Positions 1 through 62,641 of a stretch of 64,000 nt of DNA are shown piece after piece. Position 1 is the stretch's first letter. Each line of letters starts with the position of its first letter. The translations under genes were made by a program, and so were the position numbers. The stretch is from Burkholderia ambifaria (lineage in GTDB: Bacteria; Pseudomonadota; Gammaproteobacteria; Burkholderiales; Burkholderiaceae): NCBI RefSeq assembly GCF_001443045.1, contig NZ_LKPJ01000035.1:1-64000 (forward strand). Direction: 5' to 3'. The notes below the pieces were generated by a model. It was not told the DNA's origin and searched no databases. It saw only the letters and a program-made list of their open reading frames with translations.

Positions 1-573
1 CCCCCGGCCCCTCCGCCCGGCGCGCCGGCCGACGATACGCGCCCGCCGCCGCGCGGCATCGCGCTCGACGAGATCGCGCGCGGGATGCAGCATGCCGCCG
101 CCGCCGCGAACCAGTTGCTCGCGCACCAGTACACGGCCGTGCTCGACCAGTTCTTCGACCTGCGCGACGACGGCCTGCTCGCGCCGCGCGAGGTCACGGT
201 CGCGCTCGACGCGGAGCACACGATGCCGGTGCCGCTCGTCGCGCTCGCCACGCCCCGCGGGCTCGCGCTCGACCGGATGGTCGTGCACCTGACCGTGCGC
301 GGCGACTTCACCGAGGCGCTGCCGGCCGGCGGCGTCGCGGGTAACGACGACCAGCGCGGCCGCTTCTACGTGACGTTCGCGCCGCGTTCCGGGAAAAAGG
401 ACGCGCAGGGGACCACGCGGCAACGCGACACCGAGCACATCGACATCGAAATGCAGTTCGCGGCGCTGCCGCCGCCCGAAGCGATCATGCGCGTGATCGA
501 CGAATACACGCATCACCTGGTGCCGCGCGCACGGCCGGGCAGCAAGGAGAACGACGATGGCGACCCAGCCTGA
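1..573 (+). CDS. DUF2589 domain protein, 5' end outside window
   Basis: The reading frame is open from base 1, so the true start lies upstream; the first internal Met is at 85. The visible part begins with a Pro-rich stretch and then a helix (RGIALDEIARGMQ followed by an Ala-rich run) typical of the DUF2589 N-terminus. A beta-rich part follows with the family's 'MPVPLVALATPRGLALDRM' pattern. DUF2589 proteins have no established biochemical role. The last 17 bases overlap the lysozyme gene that follows, which suggests one operon and translational coupling. A phage-tail, spore-like or extracellular-particle role is possible, but nothing here shows it. The family call is from recognition of the sequence pattern and is fairly firm; function is unknown. 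Confidence 0.75.
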   Translation, partial: PPAPPPGAPADDTRPPPRGIALDEIARGMQHAAAAANQLLAHQYTAVLDQFFDLRDDGLLAPREVTVALDAEHTMPVPLVALATPRGLALDRMVVHLTVRGDFTEALPAGGVAGNDDQRGRFYVTFAPRSGKKDAQGTTRQRDTEHIDIEMQFAALPPPEAIMRVIDEYTHHLVPRARPGSKENDDGDPA

Positions 574-43177: not shown

Positions 43178-43350
43178 CGGTGTCTCCTCGGGACTGGAGA
43201 CGCCAGCATACGCGCGCGCGGCACCGCGACGGTTCGCGGTGCGGTGAAATGTCGATGTGGATGCCAGGCCCTCGCATGTGCGGTGCTGCGGTGCTGCGGT
43301 GCGTGGTGCTGCGTGGTGCTGCGTGGTCCGGCGGGGCACGGCACGGCACG

Positions 43351-43405
43351 GTGCGGTGCGGTGCGGTGCGGTGCGGTGCGGTGCGGTGCGGTGCGGTGCG
43401 GTGCG
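43351..43405. repeat. (GTGCG)11 pentanucleotide microsatellite
   Basis: Eleven perfect head-to-tail copies of GTGCG, flanked by degenerate relatives (GCACG units at 43335-43350; GGTGC/TGCGT variants from about 43278 and to 43440). It lies upstream of the ICL/PEPM gene on its 5' side. Unit length is not a multiple of three, so copy-number change would shift any reading frame or alter promoter spacing. Confidence 0.9.
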
Positions 43406-43447
43406 GTGCAGCGTAGTGCGGCGTGGCCCGGTGCGGCGCGTCGCCGC

Positions 43448-43600
43448 TCAGGAACCAAGCTTCTTCGTCAGGAAAATGCGTGCATGCCTGGCCGGACAAT
43501 CCGGCAGTTCACCGAAGCGGATATAACCGCACTTCTCATGGAACCACCGCGCTTGGCAGTCGAACGTATCGAGCCACGCGCTCTGACAACCGCATGCCCG
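43448..43600 (-). pseudogene. C-terminal remnant of a GNAT acetyltransferase gene
   Basis: Read on the minus strand, this gives 50 residues including 'AWLDTFDCQARWFHEKCGYI', 'RFGELPDCPARHARIFLTKKL' and then a stop at 43448. That is the terminal part of GNAT N-acetyltransferases (the W-L-x-T-F / F-Y-E-K-x-G-Y / L-x-K-x-L pattern). The acetyl-CoA-binding core is missing. The fragment follows the stop codon of the murR-like gene immediately and in the same frame, so a deletion joined two once separate genes. Confidence 0.75.
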
Positions 43601-45095: not shown

Positions 45096-45758
45096 ATGCG
45101 CGTACTGCTCGTCGAGGACGATCCGCTGATCGGCAGCGGGCTCGAACAGGGCCTCAAACAGGAAGGCTTCGCGGTCGACTGGGTCAAGGACGGCGACGCC
45201 GCATCGCTCGCGCTGCGCTCCACCGGCTACGGCCTGCTGCTGCTCGATCTCGGGCTGCCGAACCGCGACGGCCTGTCGGTGCTCGCGTCGCTGCGCCGCC
45301 GCGACGAAACCCTGCCCGCGATCATCATCACCGCGCGCGACGGCGTGCCGGACCGCATCGCCGGCCTCGACAGCGGCGCCGACGACTACCTCGTCAAGCC
45401 GTTCGTGCTCGAGGAACTGCTCGCCCGCATTCGCGCGGTCAACCGCCGCCATGCGGGGCGCGCGCAAACGACGCTCTCGATCGGCCCGCTGCGGCTCGAC
45501 CCGATCAAGCACCTGGTCTGGCTCAACGACGACGAAATCACGCTGTCGCCGAAGGAATTCGTGCTGCTGCACGAACTGATGCGCGACCCCGGCGCGGTGA
45601 TCTCGCGCGAGCAGTTCGAGGAACGGCTGTACAGCTGGGGCGAGGAAATCGAGAGCAACGCGGTGCAGGTGCACATCCACAACCTGCGCAAGAAGCTCGG
45701 CCACGACATGATTCGCACGGTACGCGGCGTCGGCTACCGGATCGGTGACGGCGCATGA
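45096..45758 (+). CDS. qseB: OmpR-family response regulator (QseB-like)
   Basis: A 220-residue response regulator. The receiver domain has the acidic pair D8/D9, the phospho-acceptor D51 in 'GLLLLDLGLPNRDG' and the conserved Lys in 'DDYLVKPFVLEELLAR'. The C-terminal winged helix ends 'NAVQVHIHNLRKKLGHDMIRTVRGVGYRIG'. Its stop overlaps the kinase start (ATGA). The next-door ygiW supports QseB rather than another PmrA/OmpR paralogue. Confidence 0.93.
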   Translation: MRVLLVEDDPLIGSGLEQGLKQEGFAVDWVKDGDAASLALRSTGYGLLLLDLGLPNRDGLSVLASLRRRDETLPAIIITARDGVPDRIAGLDSGADDYLVKPFVLEELLARIRAVNRRHAGRAQTTLSIGPLRLDPIKHLVWLNDDEITLSPKEFVLLHELMRDPGAVISREQFEERLYSWGEEIESNAVQVHIHNLRKKLGHDMIRTVRGVGYRIGDGA

Positions 45759-47131
45759 CGAACCTGCAACGCGCGATCGCGCGCTGGCGCAGCGCGTCGC
45801 TGCGGCGGCGCCTGTTGACATGGCTGCTGCCCGCCGCATGCGTGATCGGGCTGGTCGCGAGCGCGGGCACCTACTGGGGCGCGCTGCGCGAGCTCGACGA
45901 TCTTCTCGACGACCAGATGCGCAGCATGTCGAAGCAGATCGTCGTCGGCCCGAACGGCGAGCTGTCGTTCCGCAACCAGGGCGACGGCAAGCACGACTTC
46001 GAGGCCGGCGATCCCGACGCCGTGCTGCTGCAAGTCTGGCGCAACGGCGCGCTGGTCTATTCGACCGATCGCAAATCGACGCTGCCGCCGCCCGCGCAAA
46101 CGGGCGTCGCGAGCGTCAACGTCGGCGGCCAGCCCTGGCGTACCTACGTGACCGAACGCGGCGGCACGACGATCCGGCTCGCGCAGGCCCGCCATGCGCG
46201 CTGGGAAGCGATCGCCGGCATCGCGGTGCACCTGCTGTGGCCGGTATTCTCGATGCTGCCGGTGCTCGCGATCGGGTTGTGGTTCGGCATCGGCGCGGGG
46301 TTGCGGCCGCTGCGCACGATCGCATCCGGCCTGAAGCGCAGGAATGCGAACAATCTCGAACCGGTCGACGTCGCGTCGATGCCGAACGAGGTCCGCCCGC
46401 TCGCCGAAGCGATCAACGATCTGCTCGCGCGACTCGACCGTTCGTTCACGCTGCAGCGCCACTTCATCGCCGATGCCGCGCACGAGCTGCGCACGCCGAT
46501 CATGGGGCTGTCGATCCAGTCGCAATTGCTGCGGCGCGCCGCGACGTCCGAAGAACGCGAGCAGATCCTCGCGCAGATCCACGCGGGCACGACGCGCCTC
46601 GGCCACCTCGCCGAACAGTTGCTGACGCTCGCGCGCCTCGAACCCGATGCGCAGGCGTCCGCCGCGGCATCCACGCCCGTCGATCTCGCCGCGCTGTGCC
46701 GCTCGGTCGTCGCCGACCGCACGCGCGTCGCGGATGCGCACCGGATCGACCTCGGCGCGATCGTGTCGTCGCCGGTGATGGCCGCCGGCAATATCGACAC
46801 GTTGCGCGTGCTGCTGAACAACCTCGTCGACAACGCGATCCGCTACGCGGGCGACGGCGCGCGCGTCGACGTGTCCGCGCGCCTCGACGGCGCGACGCCC
46901 GTGCTCGAAGTCGCCGACGACGGCCCCGGCATTCCGGAGGCCGAGCGCACGGACGTATGGGAGCGCTTCTATCGCGGCGAAGGCGCGCAGGCGGCCACGT
47001 CGTCGGGCAGCGGGCTCGGGCTGTCGATCGTCAAGCGGATCGCCGAACAGCATCGCGCGACGGTCGCGCTCGGCACGACGCAAGGCGGGCGCGGGCTGAC
47101 CGTGACGGTGCGCTTTCCCGTGCCGGCCTGA
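45755..47131 (+). CDS. qseC: Sensor histidine kinase (QseC-like)
   Basis: A 458-residue membrane kinase. TM1 is at about residues 23-43 and TM2 at about 160-185, enclosing a periplasmic sensor of some 115 residues. A HAMP-like linker follows. The phospho-accepting H243 lies in 'FIADAAHELRTPIMGL', then the N box 'LLNNLVDNAIRYAGDG', and G boxes 'VADDGPGIPEAE' and 'GSGLGLSIVKRIAE'. It would phosphorylate the regulator encoded immediately upstream. The first copy of the 77-bp element lies 20 bp after its stop. Confidence 0.93.
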   Translation: MTNLQRAIARWRSASLRRRLLTWLLPAACVIGLVASAGTYWGALRELDDLLDDQMRSMSKQIVVGPNGELSFRNQGDGKHDFEAGDPDAVLLQVWRNGALVYSTDRKSTLPPPAQTGVASVNVGGQPWRTYVTERGGTTIRLAQARHARWEAIAGIAVHLLWPVFSMLPVLAIGLWFGIGAGLRPLRTIASGLKRRNANNLEPVDVASMPNEVRPLAEAINDLLARLDRSFTLQRHFIADAAHELRTPIMGLSIQSQLLRRAATSEEREQILAQIHAGTTRLGHLAEQLLTLARLEPDAQASAAASTPVDLAALCRSVVADRTRVADAHRIDLGAIVSSPVMAAGNIDTLRVLLNNLVDNAIRYAGDGARVDVSARLDGATPVLEVADDGPGIPEAERTDVWERFYRGEGAQAATSSGSGLGLSIVKRIAEQHRATVALGTTQGGRGLTVTVRFPVPA

Positions 47132-47150
47132 CGCGCGCCCGATGTGCGGC

Positions 47151-47227
47151 TTTTCCACAGATTGTGTTGGCAAGCTTGTGGACAACCCACCGCTAACGGC
47201 GCCAAGTCATTGATCTGAAAGGATTTT
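47151..47227 (+). repeat. 77-bp intergenic element, copy A
   Basis: First of nine ungapped copies. It has TTTTCCACAG at the left, the invariant core TGTTGGCAAG, then TGTGGA and the downstream TTGATC block. The right 9-mer here is TGTGGACAA. It lies between qseC and the marR promoter. Confidence 0.9.
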
Positions 47228-47329
47228 CCGGTCGTGCGCAGCGAATGCGCCAGCCCATCGCACATCGCGTACCGGTCCTTCCCCTCCCGACCCGGCACTG
47301 TCCTCCCATTACGGCGACATGCGGCCAAT

Positions 47330-47367
47330 TTGACAACCAGTTGTCTATTGCGTAAACTGGTTGTCAA
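47330..47367. promoter_or_regulatory. 13-bp perfect inverted repeat over the marR promoter
   Basis: TTGACAACCAGTT (47330-47342) and AACTGGTTGTCAA (47355-47367) are exact inverted repeats with a 12-base spacer. TTGACA in the left arm is a consensus -35 box, and TAAACT at 47353 lies 17 bases further, a good -10 position. A regulator bound here would block RNA polymerase. It ends 19 bp before the MarR-type gene, implying autoregulation. Confidence 0.8.
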
Positions 47368-47386
47368 TTCATCGCACATCCCGACC

Positions 47387-47833
47387 ATGACGAAACCCGC
47401 CAAGCTGACTGCCGTCGCGCTGTCCGTCTTCCGGCTGAACGGCCTGCTGATCGAATGGGGCAATACCTTTGCCGCGCCGCACGGCCTGACCAGCGCACGC
47501 TGGCAAGTGCTGGGCGCCATCTCGATGGCGCCGAAAGCCCCGAACATCCCGCAGATCGCCGACGCCATGGGCATCACGCGGCAGGCCGTCCTGAAACAGA
47601 TCAACGTGCTGACGGAAGAAGGTCTCGTGCAGCCGCTGGCGAACCCGACACACAAGCGCTCCCCGCTGTATGCGCCGACCGCGCGCGGTGCTGCGGCCTA
47701 TCAGGCGGTGGTCGAGCAATGGCAACAGCATGTCCGCGACATCTCCGGTCAGTTCAGTTCGGCTGACCTCGATGCGGCGATTCGTGTTCTGTCCGCGATG
47801 TCCGATGCGCATGCGCCGAACGGACAAACGTGA
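47387..47833 (+). CDS. MarR-family transcriptional regulator
   Basis: A 148-residue MarR protein: dimerising helices at both ends and a winged helix-turn-helix in the middle ('IPQIADAMGITRQAVLKQINVLTEEGLV', 'THKRSPLYAPTARGAAAY'). The ATG at 47387 sits directly after the operator/promoter repeat and gives a family-sized protein. It is followed 35 bp later by a monooxygenase gene that is probably in the same operon and derepressed with it. Confidence 0.92.
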   Translation: MTKPAKLTAVALSVFRLNGLLIEWGNTFAAPHGLTSARWQVLGAISMAPKAPNIPQIADAMGITRQAVLKQINVLTEEGLVQPLANPTHKRSPLYAPTARGAAAYQAVVEQWQQHVRDISGQFSSADLDAAIRVLSAMSDAHAPNGQT

Positions 47834-47868
47834 TCGCACCACCGACCCACTACTCACAGGAGTGCCTG

Positions 47869-48237
47869 ATGCCTCATTTCAAACCGATGGATCCGGCCTT
47901 TCCGATCCAGCAGCAGTTCGGCATCGACGCGGCCCCCGTCGTCCTCGTCAACGTCTTCACGCTCGATCCTGCCGATGAAGCCGATTTCCTGGCCGTGTGG
48001 AAGGACGACGCCGAGTTCATGAAACGGCAGCCGGGATTCATTTCGACGCAGCTGCATCGCGCGCTCGGCGACAGTCCGACTTACTTCAATTATGCGATCT
48101 GGGAGTCGACCGACGCGTTTCGCGCGGCCTTCACGCATCCCGAGTTCGTCGCGAAGCTCTCGGCCTATCCGTCGTCCGCCGTCGCGAGCCCGCACTTGTT
48201 CCAGAAAGTCGCCGTGACGGGCATTTGTACCGCGTGA
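47869..48237 (+). CDS. Antibiotic biosynthesis monooxygenase (ABM) domain protein
   Basis: A 122-residue dimeric alpha/beta-barrel protein with the ABM pattern: 'VVLVNVFTLDPADEADFLAVW', 'EFMKRQPGFISTQLHRAL', 'YFNYAIWESTDAFRAAFTHPEF'. Relatives oxidise quinols or polyketides without cofactors. AGGAG precedes the ATG at 47869. Its pairing with a MarR regulator suggests a response to a quinone-like or phenolic compound (inference). Confidence 0.88.
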   Translation: MPHFKPMDPAFPIQQQFGIDAAPVVLVNVFTLDPADEADFLAVWKDDAEFMKRQPGFISTQLHRALGDSPTYFNYAIWESTDAFRAAFTHPEFVAKLSAYPSSAVASPHLFQKVAVTGICTA

Positions 48238-48304
48238 GCCCACGCACGAACCGGGGCCGCACACGGTTTGCATGCCATGCGTGCCGCCCGATCGCGACGC
48301 GGAC

Positions 48305-48381
48305 TTCTCCACAGAAAATGTTGGCAAGCTTGTGGATATCCTGCGCACCGCAACGCTAAGCCCTTGATCCGACAGACTTTG
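48305..48381 (+). repeat. 77-bp intergenic element, copy B
   Basis: Left 9-mer TTCTCCACA, core TGTTGGCAAG, right 9-mer TGTGGATAT, then GCTAAGCCCT and TTGATCCG at the conserved distance. It lies 67 bp downstream of the monooxygenase stop. Confidence 0.9.
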
Positions 48382-48497
48382 GCACGCGTGATGCAGACGC
48401 GCCGCGCGCCGCACCGTCATACGCGCCGGTTCGCCGCACTTCGCATCACGATGCCACGTCGGCGCCCTGCCAATACGCCACGCGATCGTCGCGTCAC

Positions 48498-48574
48498 TTA
48501 CCCACAGATTTTGTTGGCAAGCTTGTGGATATCCTGAGCAAGCATCGGCTAACCCGTTGATCGGCCAGTGATTC
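48498..48574 (+). repeat. 77-bp intergenic element, copy C
   Basis: Left 9-mer TTACCCACA, core TGTTGGCAAG, right 9-mer TGTGGATAT, then GCTAACCCGT and TTGATC. It starts 193 bp after copy B. The rest of the 560-bp gap 48238-48797 shows no gene. Confidence 0.9.
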
Positions 48575-48797
48575 ATGCGCCGCGTCACCGTTGCGGCACC
48601 GCGCGGGGCCGCCTGCGTGTGCGGCCGGACGATCCGGCGCGACAGCGGCACTTGCCCGCACCTTGACGCCCGCACACGCGACGCGTCACGATCACACGAG
48701 CCGCACGCGGCCACGCAGCACGAGACTTCACGCGACGGCACCGCGGGCCGGCCGTTCCGCCCGCACCGGACAACGGCACATCATTCCGAGGAAGACC

Positions 48798-48998
48798 ATG
48801 GAACACTTCACCGCAGCGCAGTTGCTCGTCTCGCTCGTGCTCGTCGCGATCGTCGTCTATCCGTATGTCCGCATCGTTCGGCGTACCGGACATTCGGGCT
48901 GGTGGATCCTGACGATGTTCGTCCCGGTCCTGAACTTCGTGATGTTGTGGGTGTTCGCGTTCGCGCGCTGGCCCGCCGTCGACGATCGGCAGGGCTGA
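48798..48998 (+). CDS. Small two-helix membrane protein
   Basis: A 66-residue protein: helix 1 'LLVSLVLVAIVVYPYVRI', a short basic loop 'VRRTGHSGWWI', helix 2 'LTMFVPVLNFVMLWVFAFA' and a polar tail. The 'GHSGWWIL...P(V/L)LN' pattern resembles small DUF805-like or PLDc-N-like membrane proteins. GAGGAAG precedes the ATG. Function unknown. It stands alone between two groups of the 77-bp elements. Confidence 0.7.
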   Translation: MEHFTAAQLLVSLVLVAIVVYPYVRIVRRTGHSGWWILTMFVPVLNFVMLWVFAFARWPAVDDRQG

Positions 48999-49023
48999 AC
49001 ATCGAACGGGCGACCGCGCAGGA

Positions 49024-49100
49024 TTGTCCACAGATTGTGTTGGCAAGCATGTGGATAGCCTGCGCATACCGCGATCAAGCGCTTGATCCGAAAGGCTTTG
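49024..49100 (+). repeat. 77-bp intergenic element, copy D
   Basis: Left 9-mer TTGTCCACA, core TGTTGGCAAG, right 9-mer TGTGGATAG, then ATCAAGCGCT and TTGATCCGAAAGGCTTTG. It is nearly identical to copy E. The following linker begins with a GCGCCGCTTCGAA stretch that recurs after copy E. Confidence 0.9.
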
Positions 49101-49195
49101 TCCGCGCCGCTTCGAATGAGGCACGCGGCAGGCAACACGCCGCTCGCGCATCGTCACGCAACGCAACGGGTTGCGTATCGTGCGCGCCATGCCGC

Positions 49196-49272
49196 TTGTC
49201 CACAGATTGTGTTGGCAAGCGTGTGGATAGCCTGCGCATACCACGCACAAGCGCTTGATCCGAAAGACTTTG
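49196..49272 (+). repeat. 77-bp intergenic element, copy E
   Basis: It starts exactly 172 bp after copy D and differs from it at only a few positions. The linker after it starts GCGCCGCCTCGAA, related to the one after D, so D and E appear to be duplicated with flanking DNA. Confidence 0.9.
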
Positions 49273-49367
49273 TCGGCGCCGCCTCGAACCGTGCAGGCAG
49301 GCCGGCGCAACGCGTGCCGCATGCCATCGCGGCGTTCGTTGCGCGATGAACGCGACCGCTTGCAGCC

Positions 49368-49444
49368 TTGTCCACAATTTGTGTTGGCAAGGATGTGGAT
49401 ATCCTGAGCATGTGTGACCTAAGTCGTTGATCGCACAACGTTTC
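49368..49444 (+). repeat. 77-bp intergenic element, copy F
   Basis: It starts exactly 172 bp after copy E. Left 9-mer TTGTCCACA, core TGTTGGCAAG, right 9-mer TGTGGATAT, then CCTAAGTCGT and TTGATCGCAC. It ends 83 bp from the 3' end of the beta-lactamase gene. The 529-bp gap 48999-49527 holds copies D-F and no gene that I can support. Confidence 0.9.
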
Positions 49445-49527
49445 GACCGGCTGGTCACGACTGCGGCACGGCATGCATCCGCCGCTTCATTCATCCATCC
49501 ATCGATTGCACACGCCGTATCGCCCGC

Positions 49528-50421
49528 TCAAGCGAACGTCGCGACCGCGATGCGCGCAGCGGCTGCGATCACGTCGTCCTTCGCCTTCGCATCGGCACGC
49601 GTTTGCGTGTAGTACACGACGAGCACGATCGGCGCGCGCGACGGCAGCCAGATCACGCCCGCGTCGTTCGTCGTCCCGTAGTCGCCGGTGCCGGTCTTGT
49701 CGGCCACCTGCGACCCGGCCGGCACGCCCGCGCGAATCCGCTTGTCGCCGACCTTGTTGCCGCGCAGCCATGCGACGAGCTGCGCACGCTGCGCGCTCGG
49801 CAACGCATCGCCGAGCGTGAGCACACGCATGCTCGCGGCCATCGCAGCCGGCGTCGTCGTGTCGCGCGGGTCGCCCGGCAACGCGGTGTTCAGTTCGGTC
49901 TCCCAGCGATCGAGCCGGAACGTGTCGTCGCCGATCGAGCGCGCATACGCGGTCACCGCCGACGGCCCGCCGATCAGCTTCATCGCCAGGTTCGCGGCCG
50001 AGTTGTCGCTGTACTGGATCGCCGCCTCGCACAACTCGGCAACCGTCATCCCGGTGCCGACATGCTTGCCCGACACCGGCGAGTAGTTCACGAGATCGGA
50101 CTGCCCGATCATCACGCGCTGCTGCAGCAGCCCCGGACGCTCGACGCTCTGCGCGAGCACCGCCGCTCCCAGCATCGCCTTGAACGTGCTGCAGAACGGG
50201 AAGCGCTCGCTCGCGCGATGCTGCGCGCGCCGGCCGCTCGCGGTGTCGATCGCGCACACGCCGAGACGGCCGCCCGCCGCGCGCTCGAGCGCGACAAACG
50301 ACGTTGCGGACGCAACGCCCTGCCCCGCGGCAGGCGACGACGCGCACGCGGTGACGGTCAGGACGAGCGGCGCCGTCGCGGCGGCCAGCAACAGGGTTCG
50401 ACGTTGCGATGAGTAGGTCAT
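49528..50421 (-). CDS. penA: Class A beta-lactamase (PenA type)
   Basis: A 297-residue serine beta-lactamase. Catalytic motifs are the S70-x-x-K in 'RFPFCSTFKAM' (with Cys at position 69, typical of Burkholderia Pen enzymes), SDN in 'IQYSDNSAANL', the omega-loop Glu in 'DRWETELNTALPGDPRDT', and KTG in 'VADKTGTGDYG'. The N-terminus has RR at positions 7-8 and a hydrophobic run with 'VTACAS', suggesting a Tat-type and/or lipoprotein signal. It hydrolyses penicillins and some cephalosporins in the periplasm. It is divergent from a LysR regulator. Confidence 0.95.
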   Translation of the reverse strand: MTYSSQRRTLLLAAATAPLVLTVTACASSPAAGQGVASATSFVALERAAGGRLGVCAIDTASGRRAQHRASERFPFCSTFKAMLGAAVLAQSVERPGLLQQRVMIGQSDLVNYSPVSGKHVGTGMTVAELCEAAIQYSDNSAANLAMKLIGGPSAVTAYARSIGDDTFRLDRWETELNTALPGDPRDTTTPAAMAASMRVLTLGDALPSAQRAQLVAWLRGNKVGDKRIRAGVPAGSQVADKTGTGDYGTTNDAGVIWLPSRAPIVLVVYYTQTRADAKAKDDVIAAAARIAVATFA

Positions 50422-50485
50422 GTCGTGTCTCTCGTGGTGGAATGGATGCAGAACGGCCGGCCGGCGAGACAGCACTATCGTGACT

Positions 50486-50512
50486 TTACGGTTGCCTGAC
50501 AAGCAACGATAA
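50486..50512. promoter_or_regulatory. Inverted repeat between penA and its LysR regulator
   Basis: TTACGGTTGC (50486-50495) and GCAACGATAA (50503-50512) match as inverted arms at eight of ten positions around a 7-base centre. The site is in the 116-bp divergent gap where AmpR/PenR-type proteins bind. It fits a LysR T-N11-A core. Confidence 0.6.
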
Positions 50513-50537
50513 TTGAGCGCTGCCAAAAGAAATTCTT

Positions 50538-51428
50538 ATGACCAAGCTCCGTCCTCATCTTCCGCTGAATGCGTTGCGCGCGTTCGAATCGTCGGCCCGC
50601 CACCTGAACTTCACGCGCGCCGGCCTCGAGCTGAGCGTGACCCAGGCGGCCGTGAGCCAGCAGGTGCGCTCGCTCGAGGAGCGGCTCGGCTGCGCGCTGT
50701 TCACGCGGCTGCCGCGCGGCCTCGGGCTCACCGACGAAGGACGCGCGCTGCTGCCGGTGCTCAGCGATGCGTTCAGCCGGATCGAGACCGTGCTCAAGCA
50801 GTTCGAGGGCGGGCGCTTCCACGAGGTGCTGACGCTCGGCGCGGTCGGCACCTTTGCCATAGGTTGGCTAATGCCACGGTTGAAGCGCTTCGGCGACACG
50901 CACCCGTTCGTCGAGCTGCGGCTGCGGACCAACAACAACGTCGTCGACCTCGCGGCCGAGGGCCTCGATTTCGCGATCCGCTTCGGAGAAGGCAACTGGC
51001 CGGCGACGCGCAACGAGCGGCTGCTCGACGCACCGCTCACCGCGCTGTGCGCGCCGGAGATCGCGCGGCGCCTCGCGCAGCCGGCCGATCTCGCGAACGA
51101 AACGCTGCTGCGCTCGTACCGCACCGACGAATGGCTCGGCTGGTTCGACGCCGCACAACTCGAACCGTGGTCGGTCAACGGGCCCGTGTTCGATTCGTCG
51201 CGGCTGATGGTCGAGGCCGCGATGCAGGGCGCGGGCATCGCGCTCGCGCCGGCCTGCATGTTCTCGCGCGAACTACAGCTGGGCCTGCTCGCGCGGCCGC
51301 TCGACATCGACGTGCGCGCGGGCGGCTACTGGCTCACGTCGCTGAAGTCGAAGCCGCTCACGCCGGCAATGACGCTGTTTCGCGACTGGATCGTTGCGGA
51401 GGCGGCCGACGCGGCACCGGCCGAATGA
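50538..51428 (+). CDS. penR: LysR-family regulator of the beta-lactamase (AmpR/PenR type)
   Basis: A 296-residue regulator beginning 'LRPHLPLNALRAFESSARHLNFTRAG', the hallmark N-terminus of the AmpR/GcvA branch. The recognition helix is at 'VTQAAVSQQVRSLEERL'. The effector domain contains 'LTLGAVGTFAIGWLMPRL' and 'VDLAAEGLDFAIRFGEGNWP'. AmpR-type proteins bind muropeptides and induce beta-lactamase when the cell wall is damaged. The divergent position next to penA makes this its probable activator. Confidence 0.93.
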   Translation: MTKLRPHLPLNALRAFESSARHLNFTRAGLELSVTQAAVSQQVRSLEERLGCALFTRLPRGLGLTDEGRALLPVLSDAFSRIETVLKQFEGGRFHEVLTLGAVGTFAIGWLMPRLKRFGDTHPFVELRLRTNNNVVDLAAEGLDFAIRFGEGNWPATRNERLLDAPLTALCAPEIARRLAQPADLANETLLRSYRTDEWLGWFDAAQLEPWSVNGPVFDSSRLMVEAAMQGAGIALAPACMFSRELQLGLLARPLDIDVRAGGYWLTSLKSKPLTPAMTLFRDWIVAEAADAAPAE

Positions 51429-51438
51429 CGGGACCGGC

Positions 51439-51515
51439 TTGTCCACAGATTTTGTTGGCAAGGATGTGGATATCCTGGGTACCCGGGACCTAACCCGTTG
51501 ATCGCGCACGATTTA
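51439..51515 (+). repeat. 77-bp intergenic element, copy G
   Basis: Left 9-mer TTGTCCACA, core TGTTGGCAAG, right 9-mer TGTGGATAT, then CCTAACCCGT and TTGATCGCGC. It starts 10 bp after the penR stop. Confidence 0.9.
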
Positions 51516-51615
51516 TGGAGACGGTGCACACACCGGGCAGCCGGCGCGCAAGGGGGTCGACGTATCGGCCGCCGCACGCGGGATACTCAACCATCAAGAA
51601 GCAATCACGTCAGAC

Positions 51616-51692
51616 TTATCCACAGATTTTGTTGGCAAGCCTGTGGATATTCCGCCAATGTGACACGTAACATCCTGATACAAAAGAAGATT
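51616..51692 (+). repeat. 77-bp intergenic element, copy H
   Basis: This copy has the perfect DnaA-box consensus TTATCCACA at 51616-51624. TATCCACAG (51617-51625) and CTGTGGATA (51641-51649) form a perfect 9-bp inverted repeat around ATTTTGTTGGCAAGC. Its 3' half is the most diverged (CGTAACATCC, TGATAC). Confidence 0.9.
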
Positions 51693-51778
51693 CAGTAGAT
51701 CAGGCCCCGCAGGTCAACGACGCGGCATCGTTTGCGACCGCGCAGCACGCACTGCGCGTCCAATTCGGGGCCAGCCAG

Positions 51779-51855
51779 TTCTCCACAGATTATGTTGGCA
51801 AGCGTGTGGATATCCTGCGCACCAGCCGGCTAACTCATTGAGCGCACGGGGTTTT
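51779..51855 (+). repeat. 77-bp intergenic element, copy I
   Basis: Left 9-mer TTCTCCACA, core TGTTGGCAAG, right 9-mer TGTGGATAT, then GCTAACTCAT and TTGAGCGC. It is the last copy seen; none occurs in the 12 kb to its right. The gap 51429-51923 holds copies G-I and no gene. Confidence 0.9.
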
Positions 51856-51923
51856 GTGTGCGCCGCACAGGATTGGGCAGCACCGGCGCAGGCCAGGCGG
51901 CCAACGCCGGCACCGCCGGTTCG

Positions 51924-52175
51924 TCAATGCCGGTCGAGCCCGCCGCGCAATTCGCTCGCCTTGTCGCGCAGCGCCTCGTAGCCCGAGCGCGCATGTTCGG
52001 GCAGGTCGGGATCGCCGATCAACGCGCCGAGCGTTTCGATCAGGCTGAACAGGATGCCCTTCGCCGCGCCCACCGCGATGCTCTGCGACTCGATCGACTT
52101 GTGCAGGTGGTCGACCGCCGCTTCCAGATTCTCGAGCTTCTGCTCGCCGTCGTCGGGCCGATTGTCGGTCGTCAT
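51924..52175 (-). CDS. Small helical hypothetical protein
   Basis: An 83-residue protein, acidic and predicted all-helical ('KLENLEAAVDHLHKSIESQS', 'ILFSLIETLGALIGDPDLPEH', 'YEALRDKASELRGGL'), with no signal peptide or membrane segment. I use the ATG at 52175 because GGAGG lies nine bases upstream; an ATG six codons earlier has no such site. Family and function not recognised. Confidence 0.65.
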   Translation of the reverse strand: MTTDNRPDDGEQKLENLEAAVDHLHKSIESQSIAVGAAKGILFSLIETLGALIGDPDLPEHARSGYEALRDKASELRGGLDRH

Positions 52176-52270
52176 CGTAGGTGCCTCCGCCATCGTTCAA
52201 GGGTCATGTCACGATTCTATGCCGCTGCGCGCGGACGTGGCACGACATCGCGCAACGTCCGCGCAGCCGG

Positions 52271-54496
52271 CTACAGCACCGCGACCACCTTCACGCGCCC
52301 TGGCTGCGCCGCCGCCGCGACCACCTGCCCGTCGACGCGCCGGAACGTCAGCGACACGGTTTCGTCGCCGACCCGCAGGTCGTCGATGCGCAGCCAGTCG
52401 ACGCCTTCAGGCAGCGCCGGGCGCTCGACGCGCACCTCGTGGCGTGCCGCGTCGACGCTCACGCCGAGACACGCCTGCAGCATCATGAACGGCGCACCGG
52501 CCGCCCATGCCTGCGGCAGGCATGCGACCGGATAGGCCGTCGGCGGTTCGCCGCGCCGCCGCGGGAACCCGCAGAACAGCTCCGGCAGCCGCATCTCGAA
52601 GCTCACCGCCGCCTCGAACAGCGCGCGCAACAGGTTCACCGCAGCCGTCTTGTCGCCGTAGCGCGCAAGCCCACGCGCGATCAGCGCATTGTCGTGCGGC
52701 CACACCGAACCGTTGTGATAGGCCATCGGGTTGAAGCGCGGCTGGCCGGCCGCGAGCGTGCGGATGCCCCAGCCGGTCTGGAACAGCGCCGAGCCGAGCA
52801 CGCCGGCCACCGCCGCGCCGCGCTCCGCGTCGGGCAGCCCGAACGCGAGCAGATGGCCCGCGTTCGACGCGAACACGCGGCACAGGTCGCCGTGACCGTC
52901 GAGCGCGATCCCGTAGAACTGGCCTTCCGGCATCCAGAACAACGCTTCGACCTGGTCACGCAGCGTCTTCGCGCGCAGTGCATAGCGCGTCGCATCGGCC
53001 GCGTGGCCGCGCCGGTGCGAGCACATCGACATCGCATCGAGCGCCGCGCACGCATACGCCTGCACTTCGACGAGCGCGATCGGGCCGTCGGGGAAGCGAC
53101 CGTCCGCGTGGAACACGGAATCGTGGCTGTCCTTCCAGCCCTGGTTCGCGAGACCGCGCTCCGATGTGCGCTGGTAATCGAGCAGCCCGTAAGGATTGCG
53201 GTCGCACTTGTCGATCACCCACTGCGCGGCGCGCTCGAGCGCGGGCCACAGTTCGTCGATCAACGCATCGTCGCCGGTGTGTTCGACGTACGCGCCGGCG
53301 AGCACGATGAACAGCGGGGTCGTATCGACACCGCCGTAATACAGCGCGAACGGCACCTCGCCCGTCGCGGCCATCTCGCTGCGGCGGAACTCGTGCATGA
53401 TCTTGCCGGGCTCCGCATCGCGAAACGCGGACGTCTCGCGTGCCTGATGCTCCGCGAGAAAGCGCAGCACGCCGCGCGCGAGCGACGGCTGCAGCCACAG
53501 CATCTGCAGCGACGTGATCACCGCGTCGCGGCCGAACGGCGTCGAGAACCACGGAATGCCCGCGTACGGATACGGCCCGGTGTCGAGCTGGGTCGTGAGC
53601 AGCCCGAGATCCGCGAGCGACCGGTCGAGCCACGCGTCGAACAGCGGATTGCCGGTGTTGACGCGCGCCATCGACTCGCGTCGCGAACGCATCTCGCGAT
53701 GCACGCCGACCAGCGCGGTGCGCAGCGCGACACGCCCGCACCCCGGGCCTTCGCCGTCGTGCGCCGGGCCGAGCGTCGCGTCGACGGTCAGGTAGATCGA
53801 CACGCACGCCTGCGCGGCGATCGTCAGCGTGTAATCGGCACGATCGACCGACAGCGTGTCGGGCGCCGGCGAGAAATGCACGGTCACGTTGCGCTCGACC
53901 TTGTCGAGGCCGTCGTAGCGCAGCCGTACCGCACCGGCGTCGACGCGCGGCGCGACCACCGTGCCGCGCTTCGGGCGCTGCGTGCCGCGCACTTCGAACA
54001 TGTCCTTGAAATCCGCCGCGAACGACAGCGACAGCGGCACCTCGGCCTCGCTCGCGCCGTAGTTCGTCAGCGTCAGCGCTTCATACAGCACGTCGCCCGC
54101 GAGCACGCGCATCCGTTCGATGTGGATCACGCCCTCGGGCGTCTCGTGGCCGCCGAGCGGCGGCAGCGGGCGGTTCGTCAGGTGCGCGGTGAACGACGCG
54201 TTGTCCGCGCTCGTCGCGCCCGACAGCAGCGACGGCGCGCGGCCGCCGAAGGTCAGACGCCATGTCGACAGCACGCGCATGTCGTCGACGAACAGGCCGT
54301 CGTCGTGACCGCCGATGTCGCCGAGCGCGTCGCCGACCACGAACGCGTCGCCGGATTTCAGCACGTACTGGTTGTTGCGCGCGAGCGCCTGCGGATCGGC
54401 TTCGGGCGCGATGAATGCGGGACCGGACGCTTGGGTCGGGGGGACAGGTGCGACTTGCGGCGCCTGCGTCGTGGTGGCTTCGGCATGATTCGGCAT
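52271..54496 (-). CDS. Glycogen-debranching-type enzyme (amylo-alpha-1,6-glucosidase-like)
   Basis: A 741-residue protein. An N-terminal beta domain ('FVVGDALGDIGGHDDGLFVDDMRVLSTWRL' region, residues 50-250) matches the bacterial glycogen debranching enzyme N-terminal domain. It is followed by an (alpha/alpha)6-barrel with 'AGIPWFSTPFGRDAVITSLQML', 'PFALYYGGVDTTPLFIVLAGAY', 'NQGWKDSHDSVFHADGR' and 'YHNGSVWPHDNALIARGLARYG'; the Asp/Glu-rich loops hold the likely acid/base residues. It probably removes alpha-1,6 branches or acts on other glucans. AGGAGC precedes the ATG. It stands alone, with no glg genes near. Confidence 0.88.
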   Translation of the reverse strand: MPNHAEATTTQAPQVAPVPPTQASGPAFIAPEADPQALARNNQYVLKSGDAFVVGDALGDIGGHDDGLFVDDMRVLSTWRLTFGGRAPSLLSGATSADNASFTAHLTNRPLPPLGGHETPEGVIHIERMRVLAGDVLYEALTLTNYGASEAEVPLSLSFAADFKDMFEVRGTQRPKRGTVVAPRVDAGAVRLRYDGLDKVERNVTVHFSPAPDTLSVDRADYTLTIAAQACVSIYLTVDATLGPAHDGEGPGCGRVALRTALVGVHREMRSRRESMARVNTGNPLFDAWLDRSLADLGLLTTQLDTGPYPYAGIPWFSTPFGRDAVITSLQMLWLQPSLARGVLRFLAEHQARETSAFRDAEPGKIMHEFRRSEMAATGEVPFALYYGGVDTTPLFIVLAGAYVEHTGDDALIDELWPALERAAQWVIDKCDRNPYGLLDYQRTSERGLANQGWKDSHDSVFHADGRFPDGPIALVEVQAYACAALDAMSMCSHRRGHAADATRYALRAKTLRDQVEALFWMPEGQFYGIALDGHGDLCRVFASNAGHLLAFGLPDAERGAAVAGVLGSALFQTGWGIRTLAAGQPRFNPMAYHNGSVWPHDNALIARGLARYGDKTAAVNLLRALFEAAVSFEMRLPELFCGFPRRRGEPPTAYPVACLPQAWAAGAPFMMLQACLGVSVDAARHEVRVERPALPEGVDWLRIDDLRVGDETVSLTFRRVDGQVVAAAAQPGRVKVVAVL

Positions 54497-54583
54497 CGAT
54501 GCTCCTGTGTCGAGACGCAACGCGCAGCGCGCGTCGCGTGTTTCGCACAGGATAGGCCAGAACGGGCCACGTGCGCAGCGACG

Positions 54584-54626
54584 AAAAAGACGCGCCCCCA
54601 TGCGGCATTGCCATCGCCGCATGGGG
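54584..54626 (-). terminator. Intrinsic terminator of the autotransporter gene
   Basis: CCCCATGCGGC (54596-54606) and GCCGCATGGGG (54616-54626) form a perfect 11-bp stem with a 9-base loop. On the minus strand the stem is followed after seven bases by a run of five T residues (54588-54584). It lies 27 bp beyond the autotransporter stop. Confidence 0.85.
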
Positions 54627-54652
54627 TCGCGAACACGCATATCAGGCGTCGG

Positions 54653-57600
54653 TCAGAACCTCCACAGGAGGTTGCCGAGCACCGCGTTGTCGCGCACGCC
54701 GCTGCCGTACTGGCCGCTGAACGTGAGGCCGAGCGTCAGGCGCCTGGTGATGTTCGCGTCGATACCCGCTTCGAGCACCGCGCTGTCGCGAGCAATCGGC
54801 ACGCCCGACACCTGGAACGACGTGCCGCCATTCGCGAACGTGAACGCCGACGACGGCCGCACGTTGCCGAACGCATGCCGCCAGCCGACCGTTCCGCGTG
54901 CGGTGAACGTGCCGCTCGCGATCGTGCCGAGCTGCGACGCGGCGCGCAGGCCGAGTGTCGAGAAACCGACGTGGGTCGTCTGGCCACCGGCCTGCAGCGC
55001 GGCCGCACCGCCGCTTTCCGTATAGCCGTCGGTATGCAGGTTCACATAGGCCAGGCCGGCGAACGGTTCGAGCGCGACCGGCCCGACCGGCAGCGCGTAG
55101 CCGACTTCGCCGAACACTTGCGCGGAATTCGCGTTGTAGCCGGCCGAATCGTGATCGGAGAAGCCCGCGAAGCCCGGATAGCGATCGCTATTGATCCGGT
55201 ACCACGTGTATGACGCGCCGCCGCGCACGCCGAGCGCACCGTACTGGGCACCGCCGTACAGCGACAGGTAGTAGCTGTTGACCGACGCGGACGAACTCTG
55301 GTCGTTGTCGAGCGAGCTGTGCGTGACGCCCGCGGCCAGGCCGGCACGCCACTTGTCGTTGAGCGCCATGTCGGCACCGGCGATGAAGCCCGTCATGCTG
55401 CGGTTGATCGTCGACGCGTTGTCGTCGCCCGCGAGCCGGCTGCGGCCGCCGAACGCCTGCCCCCAGACCACCGGCTGATAAGGCGTGCCGCCGTAGCAGC
55501 CCTCGCGCGAGCCGATCCGGCGTTCCGGCGGCAGCGTCGGGTCGGCGACGCCGGCCGTGTTGTCGCCGCACAGCGCGGTGCCGCCCGACGACAGCGCGGC
55601 GAGCGGCCCCGACCCCGGCGCGAGACCCTGGCGCACGCGATCGGTCACCGCATCGCGCACGTAGCGGCTGTCGAGCAGCAGCATGCTCTTCAGGCTCGCC
55701 TGCAGTTCGCCGTCGAGCATCCCGTAGGCCCGGCGCGCGGTGGCCGCATCGGTCGTCAGCACCGTGTCGTACAGCGTGTTGCCCGCGCCGAGCCCGCCGA
55801 TCGCGGTCGCGACCGCGCGCTGGTTCGGCGTCGTCGCGACATCGGGCAGCGACGTGCCGTTCGCGACGAGCCGCAGGTACACGTGGCCCGGATCGTAGCT
55901 GAGCGTCGGCATGAGGAACGCGTAGTTCGAACTCACCTGGCTGAACGTGCCCTGCACGCCCGACGATGCGCTGAGGATCGTGTACGTCGTGCTCGGCTGG
56001 TAGCTGGCCTGGTTCGCGAGCACCTGCACGGTGCCACCGTTCAACGTGGCCGTGCCGCTCGCCGCGATGCTGCCGCTCTGCTGCGGCGTGACCGCGACCT
56101 GCAGCGTCGAGCCCGGCTGGAACGTGACGTTGCCGGCGACGTTCAGCGCCGCGCCCGGCTGCGACGCGGCCGCGAACGCACCGCTCTGGACCACGACGCC
56201 GCCGACGGTGCCGATACCCGTCAGCGTCGCGCCGTTCTGCACGGTCACGGTCGACTGGCCGAGCGAACCGTCGACGGCGAGCGTGCCCGCGGCGACGGTC
56301 GTCGGACCGCTCAGCGTATTGGTGCCGGTCAGCGTCAGCTGTCCGCTGCCGGCCTGGGTCAGCGAACCGGTGCCGGACAGCACGCTCGCGAGCGTCACGT
56401 TGGCGGACTGGTTGACGATCAGTGCGCCGTTGTCGACGACATTGCCGACCACGCTGCCCGACGTGCCGCCGTTGCCGAGCTGCAGCGTGCCGCCCGACGC
56501 GATCGTCGTGCCGCCCGTGTACGTGTTGCTGCCGGTCAGCGTCTGCGTGCCGGTGCCTGCGACCGTGAGGCCGCCGGTGCCGCCGATGACCCCGCCGAAT
56601 GTGCCGTTGCCGCTGCCGTTCAGCGCCAGCGCGTTCGCGCCGAGATTCACGGTGCTGCCGGCCGCCCCCGACAGCGCGCCGATCGTCTGCGCGCCCGACG
56701 CGCCGCTCACGTCGAACGTCGCGCCCGTGCCCGCGAGATGCACCGCGCCTGTCGATGCAAGGCTGCCGCCCGAACCGAGCGCGAGCGTGCTGCCGCCGTT
56801 GATCGTCGTGCCGCCCGTATACGTGTTCGCGCCCGTCAGCGTTTGCGTACCGGTACCCGCGAGCGTCACGCCGCCAGTGCCGCCGATTGCACCGCCGAAC
56901 GTGCTGGTGCCGCTGCCGTTCAGTGTCAGCGCGTTCGCGCCGAGGTTCACGGTGCTGCCTGTCGCCCCCGACAGCGCGCCGAGCGTCTGCGCGCCCGACG
57001 CGCCGCTCAGGTCGAACGTCGCGCCCGTACCCGCGAGGTTCACCGTGCTGCCCGATGCGAGGCTGCCCCCCGAACCGAGCGCGAGCGTACTGCCACCGTT
57101 GATCGTCGTGCCACCGGTATACGTGTTCGCGCCCGTCAGCGTCTGAATGCCGGTGCCCGCGAGCGTCAGGCCGCCGGTGCCGCCGATCGCGCCGCCGAAC
57201 GTGCCGTTGCCGCTGCCGTTCAGCGTCAGCGCATTCGCGCCGAGGTTCACGTTCGTGCCGGCCGCGCCGCTCAGCGTGCCGAGCGTCTGCGCACCCGATG
57301 CGCCGCTCAGGTCGAAGGTCGCGCCCGTGCCCGCGAGGTTCACCGTGCTGCCCGATGCGAGGCTGCCGCCCGCAGCGAGCGCGAGCGTGCTGCCGCCGTT
57401 GATCGTCGTGCCACCCGTGTACGTGTTCGCGCCCGTCAGCGTCTGCGTACCGGTACCCGCGACCGTCACGGCACCCGTGCCGCCGATCGTCCCGCCGAAC
57501 GTGCCGTTGCCGCTGCCGTTCAGCGTCAGCGCGTTCGCACCGAGGTTCACGGTGCTGCCTGTCGCCCCCGACAGTTCGCCGATCGTCTGCGTGCCCGCTG

Positions 57601-61753: not shown

Positions 61754-62641
61754 CCTTCCCCCTCGGCATCGGCATGACCGCTGAATCGCGCGACGACTGC
61801 GGAAAATCCGGGGCAAAAGCGTGCCCTCCGGCGGTCGCGGTACGACGTCGGTTTATTCATGAATGAACTACGAGTTAATCGATTCTCGTTTGCGAATGAA
61901 AAACTAGCCGGATGACACAACCCTGGCCCCTTATTATTTATGCAGTGATTTTCTGGTTGATTTGATTGCCGCCCGCCTTTTGTCAGACAAGGCTAGTTCA
62001 AAAGAAGATGGTTTTCCAGTCGATATTCAGCGATTGGAGCCACGCCTGTGTGGTGCGTATTTTTTACTTGATTTTGTGCACCCACAATCGAATCCCGGGA
62101 TATTCCGGTAATTTCGCGCGATTTCCGGAAAAGGTATCCGAGACTTGCGATCAGTGAAAACACCGATACTTCCACGGGGTCGACAGCAAGATTTGCGTTG
62201 CGCGATATGTGCAGGATCACGCCGCTGGCGCAGATAATCGCAGAACGTTTTGATGCGCCGCTCAGGAGCGGAGCATTTTCAAGATCCTGCAGATCACTTT
62301 CAAATCCGGCTGCGCCTGAAACCTGCAATCCCGATCGTCGCCATTTATTTGGCGACGACGGTACCGATCCCATCAACGGAGTGGCGCACTTGATGCAGCC
62401 TGAAACGGCGAGAAAATCCGAAGCGGGAAAGGATGCGGCATAGATAATCGAAACCCGGCCCGCGTGCGGCAGAAATCGGATAGGCAGCGGATGTTCGCGC
62501 GCACTTGCATGTCCAGATCTCGAGATCGAGATCGACATGACGTGCCAAGCGTATCCGGAGACATCGGACGACGTTCGGCATGCTGGAGGGTCGGGGTTCG
62601 AAAGACTTTCAAGGAACGTCAACGGGCCGGCGCGGCCGGCG
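61754..62641. other. A/T-richer non-coding region upstream of the autotransporter
   Basis: About 890 bp without a supportable gene. The part from 61855 to 62160 is markedly A/T-rich (for example CCCCTTATTATTTATGCAG near 61930), unlike the rest of the window, and probably contains the autotransporter promoter. A 242-codon open frame on the minus strand crosses the region but lacks a ribosome binding site and recognisable domains. Confidence 0.45.

What the first reader, a model, noticed from the sequence alone, without database searches (positions are those of the whole stretch)
47151..51855. Nine copies of a 77-bp intergenic element carrying paired DnaA-box-like sites
Nine sequences (A-I, starting at 47151, 48305, 48498, 49024, 49196, 49368, 51439, 51616, 51779) align without a gap over 77 bp. 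All are on the plus strand, all lie between genes, and none was seen elsewhere in the window. Conserved blocks are a left 9-mer TTnTCCACA, the invariant core TGTTGGCAAG, a right 9-mer TGTGGATAn, a block near CTAACCCGT at positions 51-60, and TTGATC at 61-66. The two 9-mers are inverted and within zero to two mismatches of the DnaA-box consensus TTATCCACA (copy H left is exact), 26 bp centre to centre. One idea is a DnaA-titration or replication-control locus, comparable in concept to datA. Others are a nucleoid-protein site, a repeated small RNA, or a REP-like element. The fixed distance to the TTGATC block is not explained by DnaA boxes alone.
Basis: partly seen in the sequence, partly recalled or inferred. 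Interest (0 to 1): 0.85.

Follow-up and report, generated by a model that had tools for sequence, protein, structure and literature searches.

The report
Nine-copy DnaA and IHF site array
A cluster of nine short non-coding DNA units in Burkholderia carries binding-site patterns for the replication starter DnaA and the DNA-bending protein IHF in a fixed layout, has been kept across the genus, and looks like an amplified version of the sites that tune when E. coli copies its DNA.

Summary
In detail: nine gap-free copies, all plus-strand and intergenic, in one 4.7-kb cluster; no other match within 1 mismatch of the core pattern in the 8.1-Mb genome. It is genus-wide: 64 of 65 genomes by strict pattern, 65 of 65 by profile. 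In 12 nine-copy genomes orthologous copies are 93% identical against 53-61% in flanks. The unexplained "TTGATC" block is an IHF consensus read on the minus strand: 8 of 8 core positions in 127 of 163 copies, 7 of 8 in 36. The boxes sit at 0(+), +14(-), +26(-), the layout of E. coli DARS1 and DARS2; datA and oriC score lower. The middle box is weak. The array lies about midway along a chromosome-2 replichore in 13 of 13 genomes placed; related sites occur on chromosome 1 and, without IHF, near oriC2. Best reading: a DnaA/IHF replication-control array, most likely DARS-like (regenerating ATP-DnaA), less likely datA-like or titrating. RNA, REP, iteron and local-operator readings are disfavoured. 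DnaA binding is inferred, not shown. No description of it was found in nine paper searches. New variant of a known kind.

The parts
47151..47227 (+). Copy A: box I TTTTCCACA, middle box TGTTGGCAA (minus strand), box III TGTGGACAA (minus strand), IHF-like site 47203-47215 (minus strand)
48305..48381 (+). Copy B: box I TTCTCCACA; IHF-like site 48357-48369 (minus strand)
48498..48574 (+). Copy C: box I TTACCCACA; IHF-like site 48550-48562 (minus strand)
49024..49100 (+). Copy D: box I TTGTCCACA; IHF-like site 49076-49088 (minus strand)
49196..49272 (+). Copy E: box I TTGTCCACA; IHF-like site 49248-49260 (minus strand)
49368..49444 (+). Copy F: box I TTGTCCACA; IHF-like site 49420-49432 (minus strand)
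51439..51515 (+). Copy G: box I TTGTCCACA; IHF-like site 51491-51503 (minus strand)
51616..51692 (+). Copy H: box I TTATCCACA (exact consensus), highest triple-box score in the window (23 of 27); IHF-like site 51668-51680 (minus strand)
51779..51855 (+). Copy I: box I TTCTCCACA; IHF-like site 51831-51843 (minus strand), the one copy with 7 of 9 positions (which copy it is: read by eye from the alignment)
49528..50422 (-). Neighbour, not part of the array: class A beta-lactamase gene between copies F and G
   Evidence: Pfam PF13354; no tblastn hit in four fetched stretches that still hold the array
50538..51428 (+). Neighbour, not part of the array: LysR-type regulator gene between copies F and G
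   Evidence: Pfam PF00126 and PF03466

Best explanation
Each unit is a compact DnaA-IHF site. DnaA box I faces a weak box II (TTGCCAACA) across 5 bp; box III lies 3 bp beyond II in the same direction; 17 bp further an IHF site would bend the DNA. This is the box layout of the E. coli DARS core with an IHF site built in, repeated nine times about midway along a replichore of chromosome 2. [quoted passage not shown] Shown here: sequence, spacing, conservation, position, IHF consensus, independence from neighbouring genes. Inferred: DnaA and IHF binding, the direction of the nucleotide effect, the timing role, and the placing of the window's own draft contig on chromosome 2 (by synteny with 13 genomes). 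I put about 0.85 on a DnaA/IHF replication-control locus of some kind, and the stated confidence on the DARS-like version.
For: (1) Boxes at 0(+)/+14(-)/+26(-) score 22-23 of 27 in 9 of 9 window copies; E. coli DARS1 scores 24 and DARS2 22 in the same frame, datA's best is 19, oriC has none at 18 or more, and 10 mononucleotide shuffles of the window reach 16-17. (2) The middle position is the third-best DnaA-box match of all offsets and strands in 163 genus copies (6.0 of 9; next 4.8) and in 29 copies from other genera (5.9; next 4.7). (3) IHF: of 163 copies 127 match ATCAANNNNTTR 8 of 8 and 36 match 7 of 8, with T conserved at 75-76 and mostly at 74. In 29 elements of other genera picked on positions 4-32 only, 19 reach 7 of 9 or more at the same offset; the next-best offset by mean has 5. 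(4) dnaA and an IHF-alpha gene are in the own genome. (5) 65 of 65 genus genomes match the profile; nearest neighbour in the same slot in 104 of 108 copies. (6) The array is 0.20-0.31 of chromosome-2 length from oriC2, pointing at oriC2, in 13 of 13 genomes placed.
Against: Box II, whose opposing arrangement with box I is described as essential in E. coli DARS, is the weakest box here (6 of 9), whereas it is the strongest in both E. coli DARS cores. The searches that found the copies used this core, so its conservation is partly selected. The first base of the IHF consensus is usually G, not A/T. Where IHF sites lie in E. coli DARS2 relative to its core was not checked, and no Fis site was sought. 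Ten of 29 elements in other genera do not reach 7 of 9 for IHF. A second, weaker triple (20) lies in the E. coli DARS2 region, so the geometry is not confined to the named cores. The tests rest on consensus matching to E. coli factors; no binding, ChIP or replication data were available. Conserved distance and orientation may partly be plain synteny. datA-type hydrolysis or titration would use the same ingredients.
Confidence: 0.5

Rival explanations
1. datA-like or titration locus: the array binds ATP-DnaA after replication and either hydrolyses its ATP with IHF or sequesters it, restraining re-initiation.
For: datA also combines DnaA boxes and one IHF site with important spacing. Nine units give 18 boxes within 1 mismatch plus 9 weak ones in 4.7 kb. 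In the tandem sub-clusters each IHF site lies between two box groups, as the datA sequence shows by eye.
Against: The unit's triple is not in datA (best 19 of 27, with box I matching only 4 of 9). Two inverted strong boxes plus a fixed weak one per unit is more elaborate than titration needs. Spacing between units varies.
Confidence: 0.27
2. Replicon-specific control site like Vibrio crtS: the main ligand is a chromosome-2 factor such as RepA, with DnaA and IHF secondary.
For: In the 13 genomes placed the array is on the iteron-bearing replicon; a related site exists on chromosome 1; the core between the boxes is almost invariant in 163 copies.
Against: The published c2 iteron (PMC4948915) is absent from the window even at 3 mismatches. 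Related units occur dispersed in 9 of 13 other genera that I sampled.
Confidence: 0.08
3. Chromosome-architecture or transcription-roadblock site built from DnaA and IHF, without a role in initiation.
For: IHF bends DNA; the array's units share one direction.
Against: Box order and spacing match a replication-control core; units flank genes in both directions and persist where those genes were not found.
Confidence: 0.1
4. Repeated small RNA or structured RNA.
For: The two outer 9-mers could pair as a 6-bp stem.
Against: Covariation term 0.04 and 0 of 8 predicted pairs with compensatory change (the paired columns hardly vary, so this is weak); 0 terminator-like sites in 47000-52000 against 4.1 in shuffles, and no promoter-like site inside a unit among 3 found; no Rfam match.
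Confidence: 0.02
5. REP-like or mobile intergenic repeat.
For: Multi-copy, short, intergenic, partly palindromic; dispersed in other genera.
Against: In the own genome all copies are in one cluster and one orientation; 48 of 65 genus genomes have 8-10 hits on one strand; orthologous slots conserved; no phage match for a three-copy stretch.
Confidence: 0.03

Closest known systems
E. coli DARS1 and DARS2 (DnaA-reactivating sequences)
   Same: Three DnaA boxes at 0(+), +14(-), +26(-) with gaps of 5 and 3 bp; intergenic; conserved relative distance from the origin (start of the abstract of PMC5010248 in the listing); IHF involved at DARS2.
   Different: Nine units in an array instead of single loci; on the secondary chromosome; box II weak and box III strong; IHF site built into each unit; Fis sites not examined.
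E. coli datA
   Same: DnaA boxes plus an IHF consensus (9 of 9) at one intergenic locus away from the origin.
   Different: The unit's box triple is not present; one locus; single chromosome.
Vibrio cholerae crtS
   Same: A short non-coding site coupling two chromosomes is the conceptual parallel for the novel reading.
   Different: crtS lies on chromosome 1 and triggers chromosome 2 (passages; start of abstracts). The array lies on chromosome 2 and carries DnaA and IHF patterns; no crtS sequence was compared.
Chromosome-2 iterons of B. cenocepacia (PMC4948915)
   Same: Repeated replication-related sites on the same replicon.
   Different: Unrelated sequence, and none in the window.

Membership tests
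DARS | Core of three DnaA boxes with I and II in opposing orientation | tested here: met
   Same offsets as E. coli DARS1 and DARS2, with box II counted as a low-affinity box (3 mismatches; the class of 2-3 mismatches is described)
DARS | Box II of high affinity, as in both E. coli DARS cores | tested here: not met
   TTGCCAACA matches 6 of 9; E. coli box II matches 9 (DARS1) and 8 (DARS2). The near-oriC2 triple, a separate element, matches 8
DARS | Stimulates ADP release from DnaA | not testable with these tools
   needs biochemistry
DARS | IHF and Fis sites (DARS2) | tested here: inconclusive
   IHF consensus met; Fis not examined
datA | IHF site together with DnaA boxes | tested here: met
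datA | datA arrangement of boxes 2, 7, 3 around the IHF site | tested here: inconclusive
   the unit's triple is not in datA; the datA layout itself was not scored against the array
[quoted passage not shown]
   needs biochemistry
Chromosome-2 RepA iterons | CCCGAAAANNCTCACCT repeats | tested here: not met
   0 in the window at up to 3 mismatches
Structured RNA or sRNA | Compensatory base-pair changes or a terminator | tested here: not met
   the paired columns hardly vary, so the covariation test has little power
REP-like element | Many copies scattered over the genome | tested here: not met
   one cluster in the own genome; in other genera related units are dispersed, a few per genome

The most novel reading that the evidence does not exclude
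The array is a reverse checkpoint between chromosomes: replication past the middle of a chromosome-2 replichore doubles nine DARS-like units at once, ATP-DnaA rises, and the next round at oriC1 is licensed, so the secondary chromosome reports its progress to the primary one, opposite in direction to Vibrio crtS.
Probability: 0.2. Interest if true: 0.93.

Novelty: new variant of a known kind. Interest (0 to 1): 0.8.

Why it matters
How multi-chromosome bacteria keep DnaA-driven and plasmid-type origins in step is known in few cases; a 2026 survey names crtS in Vibrio and methylation-based control in Agrobacterium and calls for identifying such timers elsewhere (passages of PMC13342612). A genus-wide array with DnaA and IHF patterns on Burkholderia chromosome 2, plus related sites on chromosome 1 and near oriC2, gives a defined non-coding candidate that can be bound, removed or moved. 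It also gives a portable 65-bp unit for testing whether the DARS layout tolerates a weak box II when IHF is adjacent.

Tried and rejected
Structured RNA: Rfam gave 0 matches in the window, RNAalifold gave no compensatory pair, 0 terminator-like sites were found. RepA iterons: none in the window. The family PF10134 did not mark oriC2 (matches in 2 of 12 genomes), so I located oriC2 with the iteron consensus printed in PMC4948915. Operator for the beta-lactamase/LysR or MarR/ABM genes: the array persists in four of 20 fetched stretches (L095, L096, L101, L102) with no tblastn hit at 1e-8 to those four genes. One query of that script, the small membrane protein, was translated one base out of frame and its rows are not used. 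Mobile element: a phage search with a three-copy stretch found nothing. A search for the core 10-mer in papers returned 60 papers, 20 listed; no listed title concerns Burkholderia or bacterial replication control; none was read. In one search the chromosome-1 set counted elements in both orientations because boxes I and III are mirror images; that row is not used, one search is. In one search the label "toward ori" for G013 is a script artefact: its two units point in opposite directions. One search saw only the window copies because of a wrong regular expression; one search replaces it for the genus.
Full report
OBSERVATION. The nine copies are real and at the stated places and align without a gap over 80 columns. 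In the window the core pattern occurs 9 times against 0.19 expected at up to 3 mismatches. In the own genome of 8.1 Mb in 82 contigs the 9 exact matches are these; at up to 2 mismatches there is one further site, and the reversed control also gives one. The window is part of a 70-kb contig (C31). Gene map, named by Pfam: sensor kinase 45755-47131 (+), copy A, MarR 47387-47833 (+), ABM-domain protein 47830-48237 (+), copies B and C, a 66-residue protein without Pfam match 48798-48998 (+), copies D, E, F, class A beta-lactamase 49528-50422 (-), LysR regulator 50538-51428 (+), copies G, H, I, an 89-residue protein without Pfam match 51924-52193 (-), a glycogen-debranching-like enzyme 52271-54640 (-). 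The copies keep one strand although the genes do not.

DISTRIBUTION. With up to 1 mismatch in TGTTGGCAAGNNTGTGGA, 64 of 65 genomes of the genus (own included) have matches; 48 of 65 have 8-10 on one strand, and 5 have one more on the other strand; the reversed control pattern gives one hit in 3 of 65. The place list was cut by the tool; in the genomes listed there (G000-G015, G017, G018 and part of G019) the hits form one cluster, with a single stray 1-mismatch hit in G005, G014 and G017. Copy A can lie apart (10.6 kb from B in L087). A sequence-only profile of 69 copies (R1) matches in 65 of 65, 6-13 matches each at E up to 0.01. The one genome missed by the pattern (G016) has three array copies by profile. 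Named records: the stretch D-F is found in 4 of 72,556 plasmid-collection records, all large Burkholderia replicons (B. arboris, B. cenocepacia, B. stagnalis, B. multivorans), with no feature listed under the match; that gene table is incomplete (one of these records lists 4 features in all). Beyond the genus, the longer pattern with up to 3 mismatches has matches in 168 of 299 family genomes and 13 of 25 genera, with 0 control hits in the rows.

CONSERVATION. I fetched the locus from 20 genomes, chosen from the listings, and took every element with a left box of 7 of 9 or better and a core of 6 of 10 or better: 163 elements including the nine of the window. In the 12 loci with nine copies (108 copies) the nearest neighbour in another genome is in the same slot for 104 of 108. 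Orthologous copies are 92.8% identical over 76 bp against 52.6% and 61.4% in the 76-bp flanks, and paralogues within a genome 71.1% (ungapped comparison, so indels lower the flank values). The copies are therefore old, separately maintained sites. The array persists in four stretches (L095, L096, L101, L102) with no detectable beta-lactamase, LysR, MarR or ABM gene in the part fetched.

THE 3' BLOCK IS AN IHF CONSENSUS. Positions 53-65 read on the minus strand fit WATCAANNNNTTR (as quoted in PMC4585315, passage seen). Of 163 copies, 127 match the 8 positions of ATCAANNNNTTR completely and 36 match 7; the first base is usually G instead of A/T. T is conserved at 75-76 (89% and 97%) and less at 74 (66%), an A/T tract upstream of the site on the minus strand. 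Selection of the 163 did not use this block. Independent check: 29 elements in other genera, picked on positions 4-32 only from 26 loci, have 7 of 9 or more at the same offset and strand in 19; the next-best offset by mean has 5, and it is the mirror of the same palindrome.

THE BOXES HAVE DARS GEOMETRY. Boxes I and III are 26 bp apart and inverted. Between them the invariant core, read on the minus strand, is TTGCCAACA at +14, the third-best match to TTATCCACA of all offsets and strands in 163 genus copies and in 29 copies from other genera (the searches that found them used this core, so its conservation is partly selected). E. coli K-12 DARS1 reads TTATCCACT-5-TGTGGATAA-3-TGTGTATTA and DARS2 TTATTCACC-5-TGTGGATAG-3-TGTGAAGAA, the same 0/+14/+26 layout. 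I placed these loci by eye from the deletion primers printed in PMC4585315. Scores out of 27: DARS1 24, DARS2 22 (a second triple in that region 20), window copies 22-23, datA best 19, oriC none at 18 or more, ten mononucleotide shuffles of the window 16-17. A review and a research article state that the opposing arrangement of boxes I and II is a mark of DARS (PMC10380432 and PMC8682772, passages). The difference: box II is the strongest box in both E. coli cores and the weakest here.

RELATED SITES. All 12 genomes scanned with the profile at E up to 0.05 also have a chromosome-1 type locus with 1-3 units. Of 19 units read there, the core is TGTTGACAG or another TGTTGA form, the right box is TGTTGATAA in 13, and the IHF score is 6-9 of 9. 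In the own draft genome it lies between a PALP-family enzyme gene and a penicillin-binding transpeptidase gene. All 12 also have a triple without IHF (TTATCCACA-5-TGTGGAAAA-3-TGTGGAAAG or -T), score 24 of 27 like DARS1. In 11 of 12 it lies about 5-10 kb from the oriC2 iterons; in G016 the iterons were not searched. In the own genome a further triple without IHF lies at C4:18183 (score 24). In 46 genomes of 13 other genera, which I chose mostly from genera with hits, the profile finds units in 36 genomes and 9 genera, dispersed and sometimes in close tandem (place list cut).

POSITION. oriC2 was placed with the c2 iteron of PMC4948915 (sections 6 and 24 part 1 read), which matches in 17 of 17 genomes searched. 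I used 13 of these; the own genome is a draft, and the places of three others (G027, G029, G031) were cut from the list. In 13 of 13 the array is on the contig with the iterons, 571-904 kb from them, 0.20-0.31 of the replicon (mean 0.256), and points toward oriC2 (inputs typed). Relative to iteron strand it is on one arm in 11 and on the other in 2 (G007, G020; my reading), as an inversion around the origin would give. On chromosome 1 the related locus is 0.37-0.43 of the replicon from dnaA in 11 of 11 genomes; the units point toward the origin in 10, and G013 has two in opposite directions. Orientation and distance may partly reflect synteny.

MECHANISM. Shown: sequence, spacing, conservation, position and presence of dnaA and one IHF-alpha gene above cut-off. 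Inferred: DnaA and IHF binding. My preferred version is a DARS-like centre that regenerates ATP-DnaA after the middle of a chromosome-2 replichore has been copied; datA-like hydrolysis or titration is the main rival. It is not filed as a member of DARS, because the strong box II seen in both E. coli cores is absent and ADP release is untested; the claim is that it works like one.

LITERATURE. Nine paper searches were made. By title and start of abstract none listed a paper on DARS- or datA-like sites in Burkholderia: "DnaA-reactivating sequence" with "Burkholderia" returned one review of replication proteins (listing only). The replication study of B. cenocepacia J2315 (PMC4948915) does not mention this array in the sections and passages I read; its cluster threshold was 3 DnaA boxes within 100 bp, it mentions a second c2 iteron cluster 140 kb from the origin, and its supplements were not read. 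Other papers were seen as passages or one methods section: PMC13342612, PMC10380432, PMC4585315, PMC8682772, PMC10950094. The library holds open-licence papers only, so absence is not proof.

Noticed in passing
own genome C56:24262-24305 (L114); L172-L182: A DnaA-box triple with E. coli DARS1-like score (24 of 27) and no IHF site, present in 12 of 12 genomes examined and about 5-10 kb from the oriC2 iterons in the 11 where these were located; its role is unexplored.
   Followed up: partly
own genome C4:18183 (L112): Another DARS-geometry triple (CTATCCACA, TGTGGATAA, TGTTGAAAA; score 24 of 27), apparently next to a Mg-chelatase/comM-like gene judged by eye; conservation not tested.
   Followed up: no
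L080, L081, L111 and L163-L171 (chromosome-1 locus): One to three DnaA-IHF units, in the own genome between a PALP-family enzyme gene and a penicillin-binding transpeptidase gene, about 0.4 of chromosome 1 from dnaA.
   Followed up: partly
other Burkholderiaceae genera: Related units occur in dispersed copies in 9 of 13 genera sampled, sometimes in close tandem; the array may be a Burkholderia condensation of a wider element family.
   Followed up: partly
window 54653-61816 (repeats 56464-60604): Large open reading frame on the minus strand (2387 aa) with internal repeats spaced mostly 264-300 bp, resembling an autotransporter passenger by eye.
   Followed up: no
window 43295-43454: Tract of GGTGC-type pentamer repeats (family D14).
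   Followed up: no
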